Below, piece after piece: positions 6,486 through 21,231 of a stretch of DNA of 64,000 nucleotides (its first letter is position 1; each line of letters opens with the position of its first letter). The notes under the pieces were generated by a model. That model had not been told where the DNA came from, searched no databases, and saw only the letters and a program-made list of their open reading frames with translations. The position numbers and the translations under genes are program-made. Source of the DNA: Volvariella volvacea V23 (lineage: Eukaryota; Basidiomycota; Agaricomycetes; Agaricales; Pluteaceae); contig KB722744.1 in NCBI GenBank assembly GCA_000349905.1, positions 1 to 64,000 on the forward strand. Direction: 5' to 3'.

Positions 6486-7357
6486 ATGGGCAGTAAAGAA
6501 AGGCAGGCGCTATCCAACTTGCGAGATTACCGTAATGTCATTATCCTGGATAATACGTCCACGATGTCCAATTTCCGTATAGCGGTGAGTAGTTATTCTG
6601 CATTCTACGGCAGGCTCACACAGAGTAGATACCACGTCTAGTATCTCAGCTTCATTCTTTCGTTACACAGTATAATAAAGGCGCTGAGTGGCACGCCTGC
6701 AGCGGAGATGAGAACATACTCAACCCTCGGAAAGACATCGATGGATTACGTTTTGTTGGCGAAAAATCTGATTTAATTGGATATCTTTGGACGATACTGG
6801 AGGAGCATTTCAACTTTAGGAATCCCTCGTTCAGACCAGTCAACTTTGTCATTATAACAGATGGGGAATTCGGTATGTTATTATTTTAAGCTCGGCCTCG
6901 CCGTGCCTCATGAAATGTCCTTAGACAAGAACCACTGGAAGGAATTAGAGGAATGTGTATCTCGTGCCGCTCAATGGGCTGCAGTACAAAAACGATCTGG
7001 ACTAAGACCAGTGAGTAGTTGCTATCCCGACCAAGTTACTTGAGGCTTACAGCAGCGTAGGTTGGTTTTCAATTTGTTCATCTTGGACCCTCAAAGGAAA
7101 TCAAGAAGCAGTTTAAAAAACTTGATCATATGTTTGAGGGACTAGGGGCCACGGTAGGCCTCTATTCATCCACGCTATTCTCTAGTTGATGTGCAGCACA
7201 GGGTAACGATATCATAGACACTATACAAATTGGTGACCCATATATCAACTTAGACCGGTCACACTATATAAGAATCTTTCTTGGCGGAATTCATCCTTGG
7301 GTGGATCACCACGGAGCAAAAGGAGTCAATCTCCCAGTCTCAAGCCGCCGGAGCTGA
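6486..7357 (+). CDS. vWA-domain protein, tandem copy 1, 225 aa
   Basis: Five exons: 6486-6584, 6629-6872, 6925-7010, 7061-7153, 7202-7357. The protein is almost entirely one small von Willebrand factor A domain. Strand beta-1 and the metal site read YRNVIILDNTSTMSN (D-N-T-S-T, where the usual MIDAS is DxSxS). The second metal-site loop is NFVIITDGEF, followed by helix-and-strand pairs VGFQFVHLGPS and IRIFLGGIHPWVDHHGAKGV. No signal peptide or membrane segment, so probably intracellular. vWA domains usually bind protein partners through a metal ion; no partner is known here. Intron positions and phases match the neighbouring copies, which shows tandem duplication. It is the first of five copies and one of the shorter, three-member subgroup. 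Confidence 0.85.
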
Positions 7358-8157
7358 TCGACTCCCTTCACTCTAGTGTACTTTATTCGGTGGCTCCTTA
7401 GGCTGAAATACCCAACCTTAGCATGTGTTTGTAAATACAGAACTTCAAAATTAATATCATCTAAATATTGCAATGATATTGCATTAATACAAGGACCCTG
7501 GCCGTAGTTTCTTGGAATTCTACTTACGACAAGGGAAGCATCTCTTCGAATTCATAGTTAGTGTATATAATCGAAAATTGGCGGCAAGCGCTAAGATATG
7601 GGAGATTGAATGCAAATAAATAGCGTCATTAAATGCTGCCGTCAGACTTGCAATCCGGCTGCGACTGCCTCGAGGATGGCTCGGGGATCCCTAAAAGCTT
7701 TCATCTCTCATGAACTCTCCTCAAGGTGGATCACAAGGAAAACCGTGTTGTCAATCGATCGAATACCTAGAATGCATGTATCTAATTTCCGTGAATCGAG
7801 AGGCGCCCAGGGCATTGAAACCTCAGGGCACCGCGGCATGAGGTGTGGCTTGCCAAATACCGGGCAATGTTTCCTTCCACATTGATATACTGGGCCCGGG
7901 TACCATGCGTGCGTACGAGCGCTTTCAACGATCTCAGATAAATCAAACACGCATCGTGGGATACGAGTCCTTTCTTCGAGATGAGCGCTATAGCAATACC
8001 AGTGGGCAATATAAATTATGGGCCGACGTCAGTCTGATTCTTCACTCCCTTGCTAGTAGAACGTCACTTTACTATCTGTCCTCCTTTCTAAATGACCTCT
8101 GTAAGTAGAAGGATTATTATCCCTAGTAATTCCCTCTAATTCGACGTGCAGAAGCCC
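7358..8157. other. Intergenic spacer between vWA copies 1 and 2
   Basis: No gene seen. The stretch 7731-7790 (starting TCACAAGGAAAACCGTG and including CTAGAATG) resembles 9690-9745 in the next spacer (TCACAAGGCAGACTGTG followed by CTAGAATG), as expected if upstream DNA was duplicated together with the genes. Confidence 0.5.
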
Positions 8158-9161
8158 ATGGAAAAGTCGCAAACGAGCCAACAAACGCAAGAGGACATTA
8201 AAGATGAGAGAATGAAAAAGGAGTTGAGAGTATTGGCGGACTACAAAACTATCATCATCCTGGATAACTCGCTATCGATGCTCAGCTGCCAAGCAACAGT
8301 AAGGCGTCATTTTAGGTCTTGGATTTTTCAATGACTTGGTATAGGCGATATCTCTTGCATCAAAGATTAAAGCTAACGCTATGAAATTCTCCACCAATGT
8401 CTACTTGCATAACAGTTTCCCAGGCGAGGAGATCAAGACTCAACTGGACTGCATACGCTTTGGGCCCGAGGAACCAAGCGACGAGCTGGACGATCAGGAT
8501 CAGAAGGACAAAATGGACCTTACCAGGGAGGAAGAATTGGTCTATAAAAAAGCGGAATCAGAAAATCCAAACGATAAACTGAACAATCACTTACCTCGTT
8601 ATGTTAAGCGGCTATTGAATGGGCATAATATCGCCAAAGAATCCACCCGCATAAACTTCATCGTTATAACCGACGGTAAATTTAGTGCGCTGCTCCTTTT
8701 ATTTTTATACAGCGTTCTGTCTCATGGAGTGCCCTCAGGATTCAAAGGTTGGAAGACTTTGCGAAGCAACTTGACGGAAACTGCTATGCAGACTGGGGAA
8801 CCTAAAGGTAAAATGAGAAGGGTGAGCGATGACTGCGATATCCAAATGTGCTAGAGCTAACAACACCACAGATTGGCTTTCAGTTTGTTCAGCTTGGGGA
8901 CTCTACGACTGTCCGCGAACAATTCAAAATGCTTGACAACAAGTTACCGCAGGTGCGTTATGGAGCATGACTACATATTAGCATATAGCTCCTTTTTAAT
9001 GCTCTTTTTAGGATATAGTAGATACGGCATTGCTAGGAGACCCCGCTAACCCAACCGAACACGACTATGTGAAAGTACTTCTAGGTGGTATTCACACCGG
9101 CGTGGATAAACATGGGGCAAGGGGCATCCATACATTTTGGTTCCTAAGGGGAAAAAAATAG
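8158..9161 (+). CDS. vWA-domain protein, tandem copy 2, 261 aa, with acidic insertion
   Basis: Five exons: 8158-8298, 8345-8675, 8739-8821, 8872-8952, 9012-9161. Start is the ATG at 8158; the codon at 8146 in the same frame is GTG. The metal site is complete: YKTIIILDNSLSMLS (D-N-S-L-S) with the second loop INFIVITDG. It ends with IGFQFVQLGDS and VKVLLGGIHTGVDKHGARGI. It differs from its sisters by an extra charged loop of about 45 residues in exon 2 (around PEEPSDELDDQDQKDK and TREEELVYKKAESENPND), between the first and second metal-site motifs. The intron after the TDG loop has no stop in frame, so an unspliced reading exists, but sister genes show it is an intron. Probably intracellular. 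Confidence 0.85.
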
Positions 9162-10110
9162 CGTGCTAGTCAAGGCGATATTATCATCGTGGCAACTGTA
9201 CGTTAGGGGTCAGGCGGTCCTTGCTGGTCCTGTTTATATCTTTATAGCTTATCGAGTCTGCTCGACACCATTCAAATTCATAGTATACAATCCAACTGCC
9301 CCATTTGCGGCTTCAATTCCTACTTCTCGAAACGAAGCGCCAAGGCATGAGAGTGAGCCCAACAACCAGGTTACCCGCAATGGGGCTGGAATGGTTTGAC
9401 GAATATGGATCGCCTTTTTGTGTAGCTCACACCAATCACATATGCTTCAGTTGGTTTAGATAGCTTCACAGTCCACCGAGCCCCGGCACTACAACACTCC
9501 TAGTTGGAGGACATTATGCCAAGCCCCTAGGAAGCAGTCAGATAGGTCAGGAAGGATCACAGGAAGTTTATTATTCGACATCGTATCATCGCTTTCGGAA
9601 TGAGCTACAGAGCCTATTACCACCAACGATTAATGAAGTTGAATGATGCCCATCGCGGCGGGCTCACTCTCCATATCATCTACCCTAGGTCACAAGGCAG
9701 ACTGTGCTGCTTATCGATTGCATAGCTAGAATGTTCTTATTGATCCAAAGGCGCTCAGGAGTATTTAATTTATAGCAAATGGCCTGCTGATGTGGAATGC
9801 TTCTTCTATATTTGTCCTGTTTCCATCATCGTGCATTCATAATGAAAGCTCGGTCAATGGCAGGTAAAGTGTGAACACGTCTCGAAGTGTGATAAATTAT
9901 CTATTCAGATTGCGAGCGCTACTGCGATAGGAGATGATACAAATAGCTGGTTGCTCCGAGTTGCCTTCATTAGACTCCCGTGTCCACTACGATCAGTGCG
10001 ACAGCGCTATACTTATAGTGACCCTTTTCTTCAAAACTTTCCACACCACACTTGGAGGTATGCGAGAATCCTACGCATGACTGTCCCTCTAACGTGAAGC
10101 ATAGCAACCG
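9162..10110. other. Intergenic spacer between vWA copies 2 and 3
   Basis: No gene seen. It holds the 9690-9745 stretch resembling 7731-7790 (see the preceding spacer). No recognisable transposon or tRNA. Confidence 0.45.
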
Positions 10111-11019
10111 ATGTCCAAACGATCTGGTGGTCAACCCGCTTCCAATGTTACCCCTTCCACCATTGCTCGGAGGGCACAGGAGGAGCTCAAAGTGTTGCAG
10201 AACTACGAGACTGTCATTATTCTGGATAACTCTCCCACAATGCTCAACAACTCAGTTTCTTCAGCAGTACGTCCCCTTCCAGCTTCCTGTAGTCAGCGAT
10301 TTAAGCTACTTGACGTAGGCATCGACCTTGGTATCTCGAGTTTGGCAATATGCCGATTGTTATTCCAGGAAGGTCGATATGTACAATGCTTATCCAGGCA
10401 ATGCAATGAATGTTGAGAGGGACGTTCACTTGAAACGGCCTGGAAATGGACGGAAGCAGACTTTACATCGGTTCCTTAAGAGCCAACTAGACACTTTGGA
10501 CTTGTCCATTCCCAAGAACTTCATTATTGTAACAGATGGCGCATTTGGTACGTCGGCATTTTTACTCACGTTGATTCACCTTTCACAGATTGTCCTTAGA
10601 TCTCAGTGGTTGGGGAGAGCTGAATCGCATACTGTCTGAAGTTGATCAGCAGTACGGGGGGACTCTTGACGGTTTGAAGACGAGAAAGGTAAAAATTATT
10701 TATGGATCAAAACCGCATAGGATTTATGAAAGGGTAGATCGGTTTTCAATTTGTTCAACTTGGTAATGTGACAAACGCTGAGGGGCACTTTAGAAACCTT
10801 GATACGTCACAGGTGGACTGTGGAATTTCTGTTGTTATTTCCATGCTAATGTGCTTCTAGTCCAACGCAGACACAGTGAGAGTGAATGACCCCGACAACC
10901 TAGCCATCACCGACTACATAGAAATCCTTTTAGGCGGAATTCACCCTAGGGTAGATAAACATGGATCAAGCGGCGTCTATCACATGCGAGTTCCGGGACG
11001 TGAACTTAGTAGACGATGA
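10111..11019 (+). CDS. vWA-domain protein, tandem copy 3, 235 aa
   Basis: Five exons: 10111-10266, 10319-10547, 10600-10688, 10738-10812, 10861-11019. Intron positions and phases are the same as in copies 1 and 2. The metal site reads YETVIILDNSPTMLN (D-N-S-P-T); the second loop is NFIIVTDGAF. Later motifs are IGFQFVQLGNV and IEILLGGIHPRVDKHGSSGV. The N-terminus has a short Ser/Thr extension (start MSKRSGGQPASNVTPST). In the position of the usual DIVDT motif this copy has NADTVRVND, so that part has drifted. No signal peptide or membrane helix. Function unknown beyond the probable metal-dependent protein binding of the fold. Confidence 0.85.
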
Positions 11020-12118
11020 GTATTGATGAATATCAACCCACCTCGGTGATGTAGTTTACCCTTCCTCAATTCTGGATGTACTATTGTGCCGCTCAGGCTG
11101 CAGATCGACAACCACATACCTTGATCGTGAAATGAGTGAATGGCCCCGAAAAACAGGCTGTCGAGGGGTTCGAAGATCCACCTGTAGGACCAGTTTTGGG
11201 AAATAGGGAATTATGCATTATGAGTCACGCCAAGCTTTGATATTACCGTAAATACCATGAGTTTGAGGCCCTCGCATTGAATTGCATTATCGCAAACTGT
11301 CAGAAGGGTGGACAGGAGGTGAACAGGTCATAATCTATCCTATATAATTTGGCAGGTGAACTCGCCAGTTGGGGAAAACAGGAGAACAGACAAGTGGCTG
11401 TCGCCATATTTGTCCCGCCATTCCATTAATCTGACCCTCTGATAGGTCTTCTGACTGGATGAGCTACAGGAAGCGAGGGCACGCCTCAAGGCACCGCATG
11501 CTACATTACAAGGGCTGGTATGTGATATACTCCGTGTTCTCAAGATGCTTTGGCATTCGTGTTGAGATTTAGGGCATTGCGGATACGACGATGCTAGCGA
11601 TCCTCACAACTACATGACGACCACTACGCCAAAACCCTCTTGGGCGATGTAATACAGGGCGGTTCGAGTTGACCCCATAGGCGTGTTGCCACTATGACGC
11701 TGCATCAAAACTGAATGGTTGGTGTGGCGTTTTGACCTTTATCGAGCAGGTTGGATAGCAGCCTATTGTATTAACTGGGATCAGTAAGGTATCCTGGCGG
11801 GCAGTCCATTTCCTTTGCTTTGCACACGATTACCTTTCGTCGGCGACATCTCAGTAATTGGCGGTAAGAAGTTGTGGTCCACCTAACGATGACAAGCCCC
11901 TTGATGTAAACGCTATCACACACCTCATGTAGAACTAAGTTTAGGTTTAGCAGTTCCCGGCCCCTAAGGAAGGTGCTAGTTTGGCCATGCTTCTGCCTCC
12001 CTACACTGGTCCCAGATAGGCCGGTGATTAAAAACGCGTGGCCTGATATAAACGGCACGAGTCGTGCAAGCGCTTTACCACGTTGCCTGTCACCGTGCTC
12101 ATTCCCTTTCTAATAGCC
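11020..12118. other. Intergenic spacer between vWA copies 3 and 4
   Basis: No gene or convincing relic seen in 1.1 kb. A TATAAA at 12047-12052 lies 72 bases before the proposed ATG of vWA copy 4 and may be its TATA box. Confidence 0.4.
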
Positions 12119-13399
12119 ATGCTCCCCACCAAGCCATCGCGCTCGTCGACTTGCAGTTCGTTCTCGAGTTCTATTACGAATTCATCGCTCGCCACCATTT
12201 CGACCAATGGACAATTGTTCGTGAGATTAACTCTAAAATTAGGATTTTGTATTGATTACATGCGAAAAGGGATTCGATAATAGAAGCAGGTAAGCATCGC
12301 AGTACAACGGAAGCGGGGACACACCAGAGGCCTGATCCTTATGCACAGGTCTTTCGACAAGAGTAACCAAGGCCTTGAAGAAGCTGGAGGAGTTTGACAC
12401 GGTGCTTGTTGTAGATAATATGCAGTCAATGGCGAGTCATCGCTTTCAGGTAAGCTTTCGCCGAGATTCTCTTCTGTAGTGCTGGGCTATCGTCCGTCAT
12501 ACGACAACGAATCCCCTATTTATCACCCACATCTTATCGTTCCATACCCACCAACCCGAAATATTAGGTCCAGACGATACTACACGTCCTAGCACCACTC
12601 CTCGCGAAATACGATCAGGATGGGTTCGATCTACATCTGGTGTTTAATTCACAATCATACAGTGGCCCAGGCCCAGTGCAAGCCGAGGTGAGAGAGGATG
12701 TGAGCCTGTTGGTGGCACCAGGATAACCTGTCTTCACTGTAAAGAATATCAAGGTGATTTCGGATATCATGGATCGATTGAGCTATTGCGGAAAGGAGCC
12801 TGGGAGACTGTTTGAGTACATCGACGATCTTCTGAAGTCCTACCTTCGGCGGCATGAAAACGCACCCGAGCTGACCAAACCGGTCAACTACATTATCATA
12901 ACCAACGGAGACTTTGGTGCGGGTCACTGAACTCTGAGTATACTTGGACTCATTCTGTATTTATAGGAAGCTGCTCATGGCCGCCGCGCTGTGTCAAACG
13001 GGCTACCGATTGGTTGCAGAAAGGGAGCGGAAAACTTCCTAACCAGGCAAGCCAGATCCGCTGGTGGAAGGAACCATGAAGGAGAGGTGCTGACAAGTCG
13101 TGTAGGTTGGCTTTCAGTTCGTTCAGGTGTGCACCCCGGATGCAGTGCAGCGGCTTTTCCAGGAACTGGATGACAGCAGTGTGAGCATCTTGCACGATCT
13201 ATAATGATAATACGATACAACTAATGGCTTACGTATCCAGAAAATTGTCGACACATCGAGATACGAGGATAACTGGCAGAACATTGGCCCTCAAGACATT
13301 GTAAAGGTGCTCTTGGGTGGAATTGATAGGCGTGTGGATGAAAAGGGGGCGGCAGGCGTGTATAAAATTCCATTACCGTGGCGGGAGTTGTGTCGTTGA
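12119..13399 (+). CDS. vWA-domain protein, tandem copy 4, about 271 aa, degraded metal site
   Basis: Proposed exons: 12119-12216, 12270-12289, 12349-12449, 12568-12687, 12754-12916, 12967-13046, 13106-13180, 13241-13399. Exons three to eight are firm. The first two (a Ser/Thr-rich leader like that of copy 5, and a 20-base microexon with a GTTCGT donor upstream) are the only combination found that keeps the frame. Two metal-site motifs are altered: VLVVDNMQSMAS has Met where the first Ser should be, and the second loop reads YIIITNGDF, with Asn in place of the Asp of TDG. The intron at 13047 starts with GC (CAG|GCAAGC). The rest of the fold is kept (VGFQFVQVCTPD, IVKVLLGGIDRRVDEKGAAG). It may have lost metal binding while keeping a structural or binding role. 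Confidence 0.72.
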
Positions 13400-13640
13400 A
13401 GTTTGATACCTGATAGTCCGACCATGTATTTTAGTGTACTTTGTAGTGTAATCCTCTCCACTCGCCCGGGGTGGCAGTCTTGAAACTTGTGCACGCGGAG
13501 GAAGGCGGTAATAAATAGCCGCAAACACCATGCATCAGCACTGCATCATCAGTGCATGCCCAGAAGCCTCAGCGGCGTTGGCGGCTTGGGTCCCTCGACG
13601 GCTGATGACTCCAAGATAGGTATGATGGAGCGGTGCATGG

Positions 13641-13652
13641 GTGTATAAATGG
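13641..13652 (+). promoter_or_regulatory. TATA-like box of vWA copy 5
   Basis: GTGTATAAATGG lies 57-67 bases before the ATG at 13708, a normal distance for a fungal TATA element. Confidence 0.45.
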
Positions 13653-13707
13653 CGGGTACTGCGGATGAGCCTTGCCCTAACCACCTGTCGTAGGCCTGTT
13701 TCTCACA

Positions 13708-14886
13708 ATGGGCATCTCTTCCAGCACTTCAATATATAGTAACTCCTCAGGTTCCTCAGGCCTAGGTGAGTGGCTCCTCTGTGAACCCCCGTCTACTATG
13801 TGACCTTGGGCGTAGATCGATACGATGAGAATTGGTATGATGTGCCGCGACGAGGGACTCCAGTTGAAATCGGTACGTGCATCAGGTCTATGCACCTCTG
13901 GAAAAGTGCGATAATTTGGTCCTTCAAGTTCCTGTGTATTCGCCGACCATAGAGCGTGCACTGCGAAAGTTACGAGAATTTGATACAGTGATAGTAGTGG
14001 ATAACTCGGCATCCATGAGTCATCATCGGCGTAAGGTGAGTGGAGCTCCACAGACATGGAAGGAAAGAGGCGCCAATAATAAGTTAGGTAGCTGTGTTTG
14101 TGGACAACATTGCGCAGCTCGCTTCTAAATACACGCAACATGGCTTCGACCTCCATTTCGTTTCTGGGAAAGCGTATTACCTCGGGCTAGATGTCCAGGT
14201 GAGAGGGTGCTACTACTATATCTCCTCGGCATCTCAATCTTATTTGTCAGTCCTTGTGTGTTGTCCGAGATGCCGTAGATGCACTGGAGTATGGGGAAGG
14301 TGACTTGTACGGGTATTTAGATTGGCTGCTCCGGACCTATTATCGGCGCTACGAAGATGACCCACGCATCAAACCGGTCAACTTCATCATCATAACAGAT
14401 GGCGCATCAAGTACGTGCTTATACACCACCAGGTACTGCCTGTTTCTAACATGGTATGTTAGTCGGTAATACCTGGCCGCCAACATGTTTAATTCAGGCG
14501 GCTGAGTGGGTGAAGAGGCAAGCAAGGAGAACAAACCAGGTCAGTTGTTCATCAAGCTTTTAAAATAGTTCTCGAGCCTGTTGCAGATTGGATTTCAATT
14601 TGTCCAAGTGTGTACATCCGAGGCAGCCCAACGCCGATTCGAGCAGTTGGATGACAATCTAGGAACAGCCCTTGTAAGTATAAATTGAAGAGAGTGTATT
14701 CATACGTAAACAATGAATTCCCAATACTAGGACATAGTAGACACGACAAGATACGAAGATCCTTGGGACGTTTGGGATGTCAAGGACGTCGTGAAGGTCC
14801 TTTTGGGTGCCATCAATAGGAATGTGGACAAGAAAGGTGCTAAAGGAATTTACACTTTCCCACTTCCTGGACGCGAATTATCTTAA
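13708..14886 (+). CDS. vWA-domain protein, tandem copy 5, 270 aa
   Basis: Eight exons: 13708-13765, 13816-13872, 13929-14035, 14088-14198, 14251-14410, 14463-14539, 14587-14673, 14731-14886; all in frame. A Ser-rich leader (start MGISSSTSIYSNSSGSSG) precedes the vWA domain. The metal site is complete: FDTVIVVDNSASMSHH (D-N-S-A-S) and NFIIITDGAS. Conserved later motifs are IGFQFVQVCTSE, DIVDTTRYED and VVKVLLGAINRNVDKKGAKG. With copy 4 it forms a second subgroup: extra introns, Ser-rich leader and the QVCT rather than QLG variant. No signal peptide, so probably cytosolic or nuclear. Confidence 0.85.
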
Positions 14887-15150: not shown

Positions 15151-17160
15151 ATGTCCCGTCAGGACCTGTTGGCCTCCCTTGCCATATTCTCTGTGCTCCT
15201 TGTTGCTCTTGTGTCTCGGTTGAGATCATGGTGGAACCGGCTTCCCCTCCCACCTGGGCCAAAGGGACTCCCAATACTCGGGAATATTCGCCAGTTCCCA
15301 AAGGATCGTCCATGGCTGACGTACGAATCTTGGGCAAAGGTCTATGGTACGCGTTCAGCTAATTACGGCAAACAGCAGTCATGTGGCTGACACACTAAAT
15401 TTCTGCAGGCCCGATTATGTATTTAGAGTACTTTCGGACCCATACCATTATTCTGAGCTCGGCCAAAGCGGTACTCGACCTTCTTGACGGCCGATCAAAC
15501 ATCTATTCGGACCGACCCGTTTCTTTCGTCACGTCAGAGTTAATTGAGCGCAAGAATTCGGTTTTCAATATGACCTTTAATGATCCACGGTTCAAAGTCT
15601 ACAGACGACTATTGCACAGCGGTCTTGGACCACGAGTCGCGATGGAATATCGTCCCATCCAATTGCATGAGACTGCCGTATTATTGCGCTCGTTGGTGGA
15701 AACGCCGAACGATTTCGTTAGTCACCTCCGGAGGTGGGCTATTCGGATGTAGCAGTTGTATTTTATAGGATCTAATTATATAACATAGGAACGCAGCCGC
15801 AGTCATCATAAAAGTCGCATATGGATACCAAGTCGAAAGCGATGACGACCCTTTAATCGAAATTATTGAGGAGGGCTTTCGGCGCAGTAACGAAGTTCAT
15901 CACCCTCAACAATTTCTTTTCGACTCTTTTCCTATCTGTGAGTATGTGCCGCCATCCCTGCAGTGGTATTAACGCTTGTACAGTGCAGTATTGGCCCCAG
16001 TGGGTGGTCGGACCTGAGTTCAAAGAGCTTATCACCGCAGCGAAACAAGCGTTGGATAAGGTTGACAATGTACCTTATTCTTGGGCATTGAAGGCTATGG
16101 TATACCTTTCAACTTATAGTAGAGGGTTTATCATTGACTGCAGTCGAATAGGGAGAGGAAAACTATACAGAATCATTCGTCTCGAAGCACCTCCGTGAAT
16201 CTGGAAAGACGATCCCTGGAGAGCACGAAGACATTATCAAACGGTGCAGCGCAGCGCTCTACGCCGGGGGAGCAGACACGGTACGTCGTGAAGAATATTA
16301 GGCGGCTATGGACACCTCAATAGCATCCTGACAGACCGTCTCTGCATTAACATCCTTCTTCTGGCTAATGGCCACACACCCCGAAATCCAAACGACTGCG
16401 CAGAAAGAGGTTGACCTAATCACAGCAGGACGTCTTCCCAACTTTGACGATCAGAAGCACATGCCATACGTTTCTGCCCTGATCAAGGAAATTCTTCGCT
16501 GGGGTCCAGTTGCTCCGCTGGGTTAGTTGAAAATGTCATCCTGCAGGGCAATAATCTGACGTCTAATTATACCAGGACTCCGACACAGAGTCATGGAGGA
16601 TGACGTCTATGAGGGGTACTACATTCCAGCCGGAAGTGCTATCGTTGCTAACATTTGGTGAGCCTTAGTTATTTTAAGTGACTGTTCTTAGCGTATAACC
16701 GTGATGTGACCAGGGCAATAATGCATGACAGCAGCACGTACCCCGATCCATATACCTTTGATCCAACCCGTCATTTAGGCGAGAAAGCACAACCAGATCC
16801 TTTCCAGTTTGCCTTTGGGTTTGGTAGGCGCGTATGTCCAGGTGAGTCGCTCCGAGCTTGAAAACCCTCGCAGAAGGGTGCAATAACCGCTTACATCCGG
16901 CAGGTGCACACTTTGCGGAGATATCACTCTTCTTGAATATTTCTAGTATTCTGGCGACCTTTAATATTTCCAAGGCGGTCGATGAGTCTGGCGCAGAGAT
17001 TGACCCACCGTTGAAGTGGTCAAACGGGGTGACTTCGTGAGTGATTCTATAATTTGTCTCGCTCTCCTGCCACTAACATCGTGTCCTCGAATTCAGACAC
17101 ATTGCCTCATTCCCGTGTCGTATAGTCCCTCGTTCTCCAGATGCTTTATTGAACTTTTGA
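15151..17160 (+). CDS. Cytochrome P450, copy A, 502 aa
   Basis: Ten exons: 15151-15346, 15409-15733, 15789-15937, 15984-16099, 16152-16280, 16335-16521, 16576-16657, 16714-16841, 16904-17036, 17097-17160. Start is the ATG of [20 protein letters not shown], giving an N-terminal ER membrane anchor and then the Pro-rich hinge [16 protein letters not shown]. The helix K motif ExxR is IKEILRW (E357, R360), PERF-like region [10 protein letters not shown], and the haem loop is [10 protein letters not shown] (axial Cys436). Length and layout are those of fungal microsomal class II P450s resembling the CYP64/O-methylsterigmatocystin-oxidoreductase type that is numerous in Agaricomycetes. Substrate unknown. 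An inverted twin lies at 19231-21231. The last exon ([14 protein letters not shown]) is easily missed, because reading through the previous donor gives an early stop. Confidence 0.93.
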
Positions 17161-19230: not shown

Positions 19231-21231
19231 TTAAAGATTCATCAAAGCCTCAGGAGAGCGAGGCACTATACGGCATGGGAATGGAGTGATATGTCTGCAA
19301 AGTAGCGTCAGCAGCGGAATTACAGCTCAAGCGTACAGGTCCACTAACGAGATCATCCCGGTTGTCCAGTTCAGGGGTGGGTCGATTTCTGCGCCAGAAT
19401 CATCAATTGCCTTACGAATATTGAATGTCGCCAAAATGCTTGAAATGTTCAAGAAGAGCGATAATCCCGCGAAATGCGCGCCTATTAGTAGAGGGCAATT
19501 ACGAGTATTGAAGCTTGTAGAGGCGTACGTAAAAAAGCCAACTCACCAGGGCATGCCCGCCTGCCGAACCCATAGACAAAGTTCAAGGGATCTGGTTGGG
19601 CCTTCTCGCCAAGGTGGCGCGTTGGGTCAAAAACATGTGGGTCAGGATATATTTCGCTATCATGTGTTATCGCCCTGGATAGATCATGGTTAAAACATGA
19701 GAGAGATTTCGTCGGACAAGGCGCACCATATATTAGCAATAATGGTGCTTCCTGCCGGAATATGGTAGCATTCGTAAATGTCGTCCTCCATGACTCTATG
19801 TTGAAGTCCTAATGGAGACAGAAATGGATCAAGTTCGCTGTAATGAGAGGGCGGGGCTCAGCTTACCGAGGGGGCCCACTGGACCCCAGCGAAGAACCTC
19901 CTTGATCAGGGCAGAAACATATGGCATGTGCTTCTGATCGTCAAAGTTGGGAAGACGCCCTGCTGTGATTGAATCGATTTCCCTCTGCGCAGTCGCTTGA
20001 ATTTCGGGGTGTGTAGTCATCAGCCAGAAGAAGGTGGTTAGCGCAGAAATGGTCTAGTGAGGCACTTCAATACATCAAATCTCACACATCACGCACAATA
20101 CCCACCGTATCTGTTCCTCCAGCGTAAAGCGCTGAACTACATCGCTTGACAATATCCTCGTGCTCTCCAGGGATCAGCTTTCCGGGTTCACGGAGATGTA
20201 TTGACACAAATGATTCCGTGTGATCTTCACTCTCCTGTCAGGCCGCACTTAGTACGATGGCATCAGAGAAACTCCAAGTCATACCATAGCTTTTAGTGTC
20301 CACAAATAAGGCAAATTGTCAATCCTGTCGAATCCTGCCTTCGCTGCAGTAATAATTTTCTCGAATTCAGACCCCATAACCCATTGAGGCCTGTACTGCA
20401 CTGCACAAGACCATTAGCGCTTGCCGTCAAACCCTTGGGACAGACTCACAGATAGGAAAAGAGTCAAAAAGGAATTGACGAGGGTGATTGGCTGCACCGG
20501 CACTGCGATGACCTTCCTCCGTGACCTTGATGAAAAAGTCGTCCTCACTGTTAACCTGATACCCATATGCAATTTTCATAATAACCGCAGCTGCATTCCT
20601 GCGAACGACGCTCGGATACTACAATGAACACAAGTCACTAGGCGACTCACCTGCGAATATGACGGATGAACTCGCTTGGTGATTTGGCCAACGATTGCAA
20701 TAGCACAACGGTCTCGTGCAACTGCGCAGAACGAAAGTCAATTACAGAACGCGGACCAAGACCGCTGTGCAACAATCTCCTGTATATCTTAAATCGTGGA
20801 TCGCTATATCTCATGAAAAACATCGAGTTCTTTCGGCCGATGAGTTCAGACAAGACAAAAGGAGCCGGTCGATCCGAGTAGATGTTAGAGCGAGCTTCCA
20901 GGAGGTCGAGTGCTACTTTGGCGGAACTAAGAACGATAACGTGAGTTCGGAGGTAGTCGAGATGCATAATTGGTCCTTCGTGTAGCAGTTCAATTTGTCA
21001 CAGGTATCTTATTTGCAATGTAATCATATACACACCATATGTTTTAGCCCAAGATTCATAGGTTAGCCATGGTGTCTGTTTTGGAAACTGGCGAAGATTT
21101 CCTATGATTGGGAGCCCTTTTGGGCCAGGTGGGAGTGGAAGTCGATACCACCATGACCTCAATCGAGGTGTAATGGCGACGAGGAGAACAGCGAATATCA
21201 CAAGTGAGGCCAATAGGTCCTGGTGAGGCAT
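19231..21231 (-). CDS. Cytochrome P450, copy B, 502 aa
   Basis: Ten exons on the minus strand: 21231-21036, 20975-20651, 20598-20450, 20400-20285, 20234-20106, 20053-19867, 19808-19727, 19674-19547, 19481-19349, 19294-19231. Every exon has exactly the same length as its partner in copy A, so the protein is also 502 aa. It has an N-terminal anchor (MPHQDLLASLVIFAVLLVAI), hinge [16 protein letters not shown], helix K IKEVLRW (ExxR 357-360) and haem loop YGFGRRACPG (Cys436). Differences are spread through the protein, with clusters in likely substrate-recognition areas (for example [12 protein letters not shown] in A against GRKNSMFFMRYS in B). No broken frame, so both copies look functional. 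Substrate unknown. Confidence 0.93.

What the first reader, a model, noticed from the sequence alone, without database searches (positions are those of the whole stretch)
6486..14886. Tandem array of five small vWA-domain genes
Five same-strand genes in 8.4 kb encode proteins that are little more than a vWA domain (225-271 aa), with conserved intron phases at the second-loop, QFVQ and terminal exons. They fall into two subgroups: copies 1-3 (five exons, QLG motif) and copies 4-5 (eight exons, Ser-rich leader, QVCT motif). Such local expansion and divergence of a probable protein-binding module suggests a lineage-specific recognition system, for example self/non-self or stress-related. The function is inference; the array and motifs are seen directly.
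Basis: partly seen in the sequence, partly recalled or inferred. Interest (0 to 1): 0.75.

Follow-up and report, generated by a model that had tools for sequence, protein, structure and literature searches.

The report
Mushroom vWA gene cluster, eroded metal site
A straw-mushroom genome carries five neighbouring copies of a small, probably intracellular protein-binding domain whose usual metal-binding face has been rebuilt or partly lost, a divergent branch of an otherwise well-conserved but apparently unstudied mushroom protein family.

The parts
6486..7357 (+). c1: vWA protein, 225 aa; exons 6486-6584, 6629-6872, 6925-7010, 7061-7153, 7202-7357; DNTST / TDG, no TPxG loop
   Evidence: groups with c2-c3. 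Not among the 120 listed hits.
8092..9161 (+). c2: vWA protein, 269 aa; exons 8092-8100, 8152-8298, 8345-8684, 8739-8821, 8872-8952, 9012-9161; long acidic insert in loop 2
   Evidence: same protein as AX16_007789 (P0047).
10111..11019 (+). c3: vWA protein, 235 aa; exons 10111-10266, 10319-10547, 10600-10688, 10738-10812, 10861-11019
11571..11682 (+). possible remnant of a sixth copy's last exon (suggestive only)
   Evidence: Top score (41.0; next 34.5 and 32.6) of a frameshift-tolerant scan of the exon-masked window, both strands; only the end, 11682, comes from that call, the start is by eye. Not found by tblastn or by DNA alignment against shuffles.
12119..13399 (+). c4: vWA protein, 274 aa; exons 12119-12216, 12270-12289, 12349-12449, 12568-12687, 12745-12916, 12967-13046, 13106-13180, 13241-13399; GC-AG intron 13047-13105; Ser-rich leader; DNMQS / TNG
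   Evidence: AX16_007803 (P0048) agrees up to 13046, then reads on into the GC-AG intron and ends at 207 aa.
13708..14886 (+). c5: vWA protein, 270 aa; 8 exons; start MGISSSTS fits an N-myristoylation pattern; DNSAS / TDG, loop-2 Thr lost

Best explanation
A tandemly duplicated, MIDAS-eroded branch, probably of Pluteaceae, within an Agaricomycete intracellular vWA family. Shown: five intact gene models in one clade; vWA fold (predicted) for c5 and c3; no hydrophobic signal or membrane segment; residues around the metal site (second Asp of DDS, the Gly and Trp after it, the Gly of TPxG, Asp and Pro after TDG) changed in all five; no PPxY. Inferred: they are cytosolic, largely metal-independent protein-binding scaffolds that work like the vWA body of Rpn10 or RGLG, holding partners by surfaces other than a metal-held acidic residue. 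c5 may be tethered to membranes by an N-terminal myristate. Their ordinary relatives may bring partners to a WW-domain ubiquitin ligase of the Rsp5/Nedd4 type through PPxY; the array copies, lacking that motif, would bind without recruiting the ligase, as regulators or competitors. The structural part is likely (about 0.85); the scaffold/competitor function is a guess (about 0.3).
For: Gene models and splice phases; public protein records. Fold: (104 PDB matches at E up to 0.001). MIDAS: 135 of 137 relatives complete by residue (Ser allowed for Thr and the reverse), both exceptions from Pluteus cervinus. Of 73 columns kept by at least 90% of 40 relatives, c1-c5 keep 30, 41, 36, 43, 48, and the named columns around the metal site are changed in all five. 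PPxY in 30 of 44 relatives; in 29 of 32 with a leader of 60 aa or more, against a shuffle mean of 0.85, maximum 5; in 86 of 96 such leaders of the larger set. Myristoylation-like start in 48 of 134. One clade 99/97, 99/89; the array with P0071 (Pluteus) and P0032 (environmental) is set apart from the other 37 rows at 98/99. pN 0.34-0.52 against pS 0.72-0.85. Rpn10's vWA binds ubiquitin and Rsp5 is its E3 (PMC5059453, passages).
Against: No transcript, binding, localisation or metal data. The function of the parent family is unknown; PPxY-Rsp5 is read from a motif. MIDAS loss is not clean in c1 and c2: one alignment puts R and T, another S and S, in the Thr column, and by the residue rule c2 would count as complete. 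The erosion is only somewhat stronger in the half with the metal site: c1-c5 keep 14, 20, 18, 20, 23 of 38 conserved columns there and 16, 21, 18, 23, 25 of 35 after it; a distant paralogue of the same genome (C12) keeps 31 and 19, so its total (50) is close to that of c5. c3 has also lost DIVDT. Long branches make joins uncertain. The second Pluteus protein, P0051, did not join the array branch: MIDAS loss then needs two changes, in all bootstrap trees. Fold predicted for two of five copies only; Rpn10 and RGLG score close to many other vWA domains.
Confidence: 0.5

Rival explanations
1. Relaxed, dying duplicates: the copies escaped constraint after duplication and are drifting towards loss.
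For: End branches of 0.87-3.19 against a median of 0.22 (0.61-2.27 against 0.55); metal site eroded; conserved columns lost in both halves; possible sixth-copy remnant.
Against: All five are open over 5-8 exons with shared intron phases. pN is below the saturated pS in all ten pairs. Folds are predicted with fair confidence for two. A MIDAS-less relative survives in Pluteus.
Confidence: 0.2
2. Self/non-self or other recognition locus: the copies diversify to recognise partners or intruders.
For: Tandem copies, strong divergence, loops of differing length.
Against: No HET, NACHT or similar Pfam match in the five proteins; no secretion or membrane signal by hydropathy; c2, c3 and c5 identical in a second assembly, which may be the same strain; amino-acid change lags saturated synonymous change.
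Confidence: 0.1
3. Ordinary metal-dependent vWA binders: a divergent MIDAS still holds a metal in some copies.
For: c2 and c5 keep DxSxS and TDG; Thr may stand in for Ser in c1 and c3; c1 and c2 may supply a loop-2 hydroxyl, c2 meeting the residue rule. The copine MIDAS is non-canonical but appears to bind metal (PMC10968396, passages).
Against: The TPxG Gly, the Trp after DDS and the Asp/Pro after TDG are changed in all five; the Thr column is T or S in 135 of 137 relatives but not in c3, c4, c5 in either alignment; c4 has Met for Ser and Asn for Asp.
Confidence: 0.15

Closest known systems
Agaricomycete 'VWFA domain-containing protein' family (e.g. Collybia, Suillus, Mycena, Trametes; unnamed)
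   Same: Same order of conserved blocks (DTVIIVD-S, QFVQ, DIVDT, LLGGI); 28-38% identity to c5.
   Different: Relatives keep a complete MIDAS (135 of 137) and mostly a PPxY leader; array copies lack PPxY and the TPxG/TDDP residues and mostly sit on longer branches (c5 hardly so).
Pluteus cervinus BDN72DRAFT_389143 / 389146 (P0071, P0051)
   Different: P0051 does not join the array on the tree; the five Volvariella copies form their own clade.
Rpn10 vWA (proteasome subunit)
   Different: 10% identity; no UIM hit in Pfam; no evidence of proteasome binding.
Plant RGLG RING E3s and copines
   Different: No RING or C2 hit in the array proteins; only 1-6 Cys each.

Membership tests
vWA domain superfamily | Rossmann-like vWA fold | tested here: met
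vWA domain superfamily | Pfam VWA/VWA_2 match over curated cut-off | tested here: not met
   0 of 5 copies; best c5 VWA_2 13 bits, cut-off 27. Among 47 aligned members (44 of them relatives) 35 match VWA at E up to 0.01.
MIDAS-bearing vWA | DxSxS + loop-2 Thr + loop-3 Asp | tested here: inconclusive
   Incomplete in c3, c4, c5; c1 and c2 depend on the alignment.
Agaricomycete PPxY-vWA family | Homology and conserved blocks | tested here: met
Agaricomycete PPxY-vWA family | PPxY in the leader | tested here: not met
   None in c1-c5 (read in the sequences); 86 of 96 long leaders elsewhere. Relatives with short leaders often lack it too.
Agaricomycete PPxY-vWA family | MGxxxS/T myristoylation-like start | tested here: inconclusive
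   c5 fits; c1 starts MGSKER and does not; c2, c3, c4 do not start MG. Only 48 of 134 relatives fit.
Plant RGLG E3 | RING domain | tested here: not met
   No Pfam RING hit; 1-6 Cys per protein.
Copine | Two C2 domains | tested here: not met
   No C2 hit; proteins of 225-274 aa, mostly taken up by the vWA in the two models.
Rpn10 | C-terminal ubiquitin-interacting motif, proteasome binding | not testable with these tools
   No UIM hit in Pfam; binding needs experiment.
Fungal allorecognition genes | High allelic polymorphism with confrontation phenotype | not testable with these tools
   Only one other assembly seen; three copies identical there.

The most novel reading that the evidence does not exclude
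The parent family is an undescribed fungal class of membrane-tethered vWA adaptors for an Rsp5/Nedd4-type ubiquitin ligase, a counterpart of plant RGLG with the ligase brought in by PPxY instead of a built-in RING. In Pluteaceae, duplicated copies that lost both the metal site and the PPxY motif became decoys that bind the same partners without recruiting the ligase.
Probability: 0.13. Interest if true: 0.65.

Novelty: new variant of a known kind. Interest (0 to 1): 0.4.

Why it matters
In this vWA family the metal site is nearly invariant across mushrooms, yet in one branch it was rebuilt while the proteins stayed under constraint: a natural test of what a vWA domain does without its metal. 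It also points at an apparently unstudied fungal family with a strong short linear motif (PPxY, sometimes with a myristoylation-like start) that suggests a testable link to ubiquitin ligases.

Tried and rejected
Naming by family models: Pfam gives no curated match for c1-c5 (c2 has sub-threshold hits to DpnII, 16 bits, and SHIRT, 16.2 bits, taken as chance). NCBIfam was run on 31 rows, of the array only c2, c3 and c5; c3's one hit was E 0.1, and the best over all rows was TIGR03788, 6 of 31 rows, best E 3.8e-5. PDB by sequence profile: only two midasin entries (E 0.013, 0.038) and a 'conserved protein' (0.057).

Ordinary PPxY-type member elsewhere in this genome: four protein queries. P0009 and P0023 found more distant vWA genes at C12, C34 and C23 (P0023 also the array); c5 and c3 found only the array. 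Pfam VWA found two places on C26 and one on C1. The search is exon by exon and may miss a split gene.

Relic copies: tblastn and DNA alignment negative, one suggestive frameshift-tolerant hit. Positive selection: dS not estimable in nine of ten pairs. Telomere: no TTAGGGTTAGGG in the window. A first count of the MIDAS Thr as 44 of 44 included P0032, which on reading lacks a MIDAS; that figure is not used. Literature: nine searches; eight on this family or its motifs showed no paper on it in their listings, four of them returning nothing; one search was on RGLG1. The library lacks most subscription papers.
Full report
What is there. The window is the start of contig C9 of a 35.4 Mb genome in 54 contigs. 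Public proteins identical to c5 and c3 are named Volvariella volvacea WC 439, so this is that species or nearly so; the contig lengths differ (932,072 here; 137,122 there), so it is another assembly, perhaps of the same strain. Five genes on the + strand between 6486 and 14886 have open spliced models of 225, 269, 235, 274 and 270 aa. All splice sites are GT-AG but one GC-AG in c4. The public c4 model reads into that intron and ends at 207 aa; c1 does not appear among the 120 listed of 251 hits. Four introns are shared by all five in place and phase.

The family. c5 finds 44 other proteins, 28-38% identical, the named ones all from Agaricomycetes (class from recall). c3 alone finds only itself and c2. 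The profile of the five finds 251 (120 listed). Ordinary relatives have DDSxSM, GxTPxG and TDG. Of 137 relatives examined, 135 have a complete MIDAS by residue, with Ser and Thr taken as equal at two places; the two exceptions are Pluteus cervinus proteins. That set left out P0032, an environmental protein that on reading also lacks it. Leaders carry PPxY in 30 of 44 relatives; counting leaders of 60 aa or more, in 29 of 32, against 0.85 on average and at most 5 after shuffling each leader, and in 86 of 96 in the larger set. Relatedness among these proteins inflates any such count. A start fitting N-myristoylation is seen in 48 of 134, and an HxRxxS-like site in 48 of 96 long leaders. The meaning of these motifs (WW-domain ligase, myristate, NDR-type kinase) is recalled knowledge, not tested here.

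What changed in the array. Of 73 columns conserved in at least 90% of 40 relatives, c1-c5 keep 30, 41, 36, 43 and 48. Up to and including TDG they keep 14, 20, 18, 20 and 23 of 38, after it 16, 21, 18, 23 and 25 of 35; a distant paralogue in the same genome (C12) keeps 31 and 19. So the array is set apart mainly in the half with the metal site, but has lost much in both. Changed in all five: the second Asp of DDS (Asn instead), the Gly and Trp after it, the Gly of TPxG, and the Asp and Pro after TDG; Phe is new in GFQFVQ in all five. The loop-2 Thr is lost in c3, c4 and c5 in both alignments; in c1 and c2 it depends on the alignment (R and T, S and S), and c2 would pass the residue rule. c4 also has Met for the first Ser and Asn for Asp. 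None of the five has PPxY; c5 alone fits the myristoylation pattern. Hydropathy gives no signal peptide or membrane segment (highest 19-residue mean 1.22).

History. The five are one clade, 99/97, and 99/89 with other relatives, split into c1-c3 (97/91; 100/97) and c4-c5 (99/95; 92/73). Their end branches are 0.87-3.19 against a median of 0.22 in the first tree and 0.61-2.27 against 0.55 in the second, where c5 is hardly longer than the rest; both trees warn that long branches meet. P0071 (Pluteus) and P0032 lie next to them, apart from the other 37 rows at 98/99; P0051, the other Pluteus protein, does not, so MIDAS loss needs two changes on that tree, with its own branch of 3.53 making its place unsure. 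P0051 looks, by eye, like a fused prediction of two tandem copies. So a MIDAS-less branch probably predates Volvariella, and the expansion to five is on the Volvariella side. Non-synonymous difference (0.34-0.52) is below synonymous (0.72-0.85, saturated) in all ten pairs: constraint has acted; selection for change cannot be tested.

How it probably works. Shown or well supported: intact gene models, vWA fold, changed metal face, no PPxY, probably cytosolic. Inferred: largely metal-independent protein-binding scaffolds. Rpn10 is a precedent for an intracellular vWA tied to ubiquitin: its vWA binds ubiquitin and Rsp5 is its ligase (PMC5059453, passages). Plant RGLG proteins pair a copine-type vWA with a RING domain (PMC10397244, passages). 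The copine vWA has a non-canonical MIDAS that appears to work (PMC10968396, passages), a warning that altered residues need not mean no metal.

Novelty. A new variant of a known kind: a MIDAS-eroded, tandem vWA branch. The parent family showed up in none of the listings of eight searches of the held library, which lacks most subscription papers.

Noticed in passing
relatives P0002-P0145: Most ordinary members of the Agaricomycete vWA family with a long leader carry PPxY there, and about a third of all start with a myristoylation-like MGxxxS, suggesting a membrane-tethered adaptor for a WW-domain ubiquitin ligase.
   Followed up: partly
relatives' leaders: HxRxxS/T-like site in 48 of 96 long leaders, several as HxRSRSAD by eye; resembles the NDR/LATS kinase consensus (recalled).
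   Followed up: no
G000:C26:309250-318203 (L001, L002): Two neighbouring paralogues with a vWA match over cut-off (29.9 and 25.8 bits); open frames of L001 also hold a ubiquitin-conjugating domain (51.7 bits), a possible vWA-E2 combination; gene models not built.
   Followed up: partly
G000:C12:622783-625950 and C34:144071-147235 (L025, L026): Two close paralogues of a more distant vWA gene with an intact TPTG loop and a Pro-rich stretch before the domain.
   Followed up: partly
G000:C23 near 116772-116951 (L032): Another vWA-like gene (weak, E 0.027); upstream frames looked patatin-like by eye but Pfam gave no hit.
   Followed up: partly
window 12967-13105 and 6486-7357: The public c4 protein (AX16_007803) is cut short where a GC-AG intron was missed; c1 is not among the 120 listed hits and may be unannotated.
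   Followed up: partly
window 15156-16200 (+) and about 20100-21000 (-): Two similar genes downstream of the array look like cytochrome P450s by eye; one exon of each gave no Pfam hit.
   Followed up: partly
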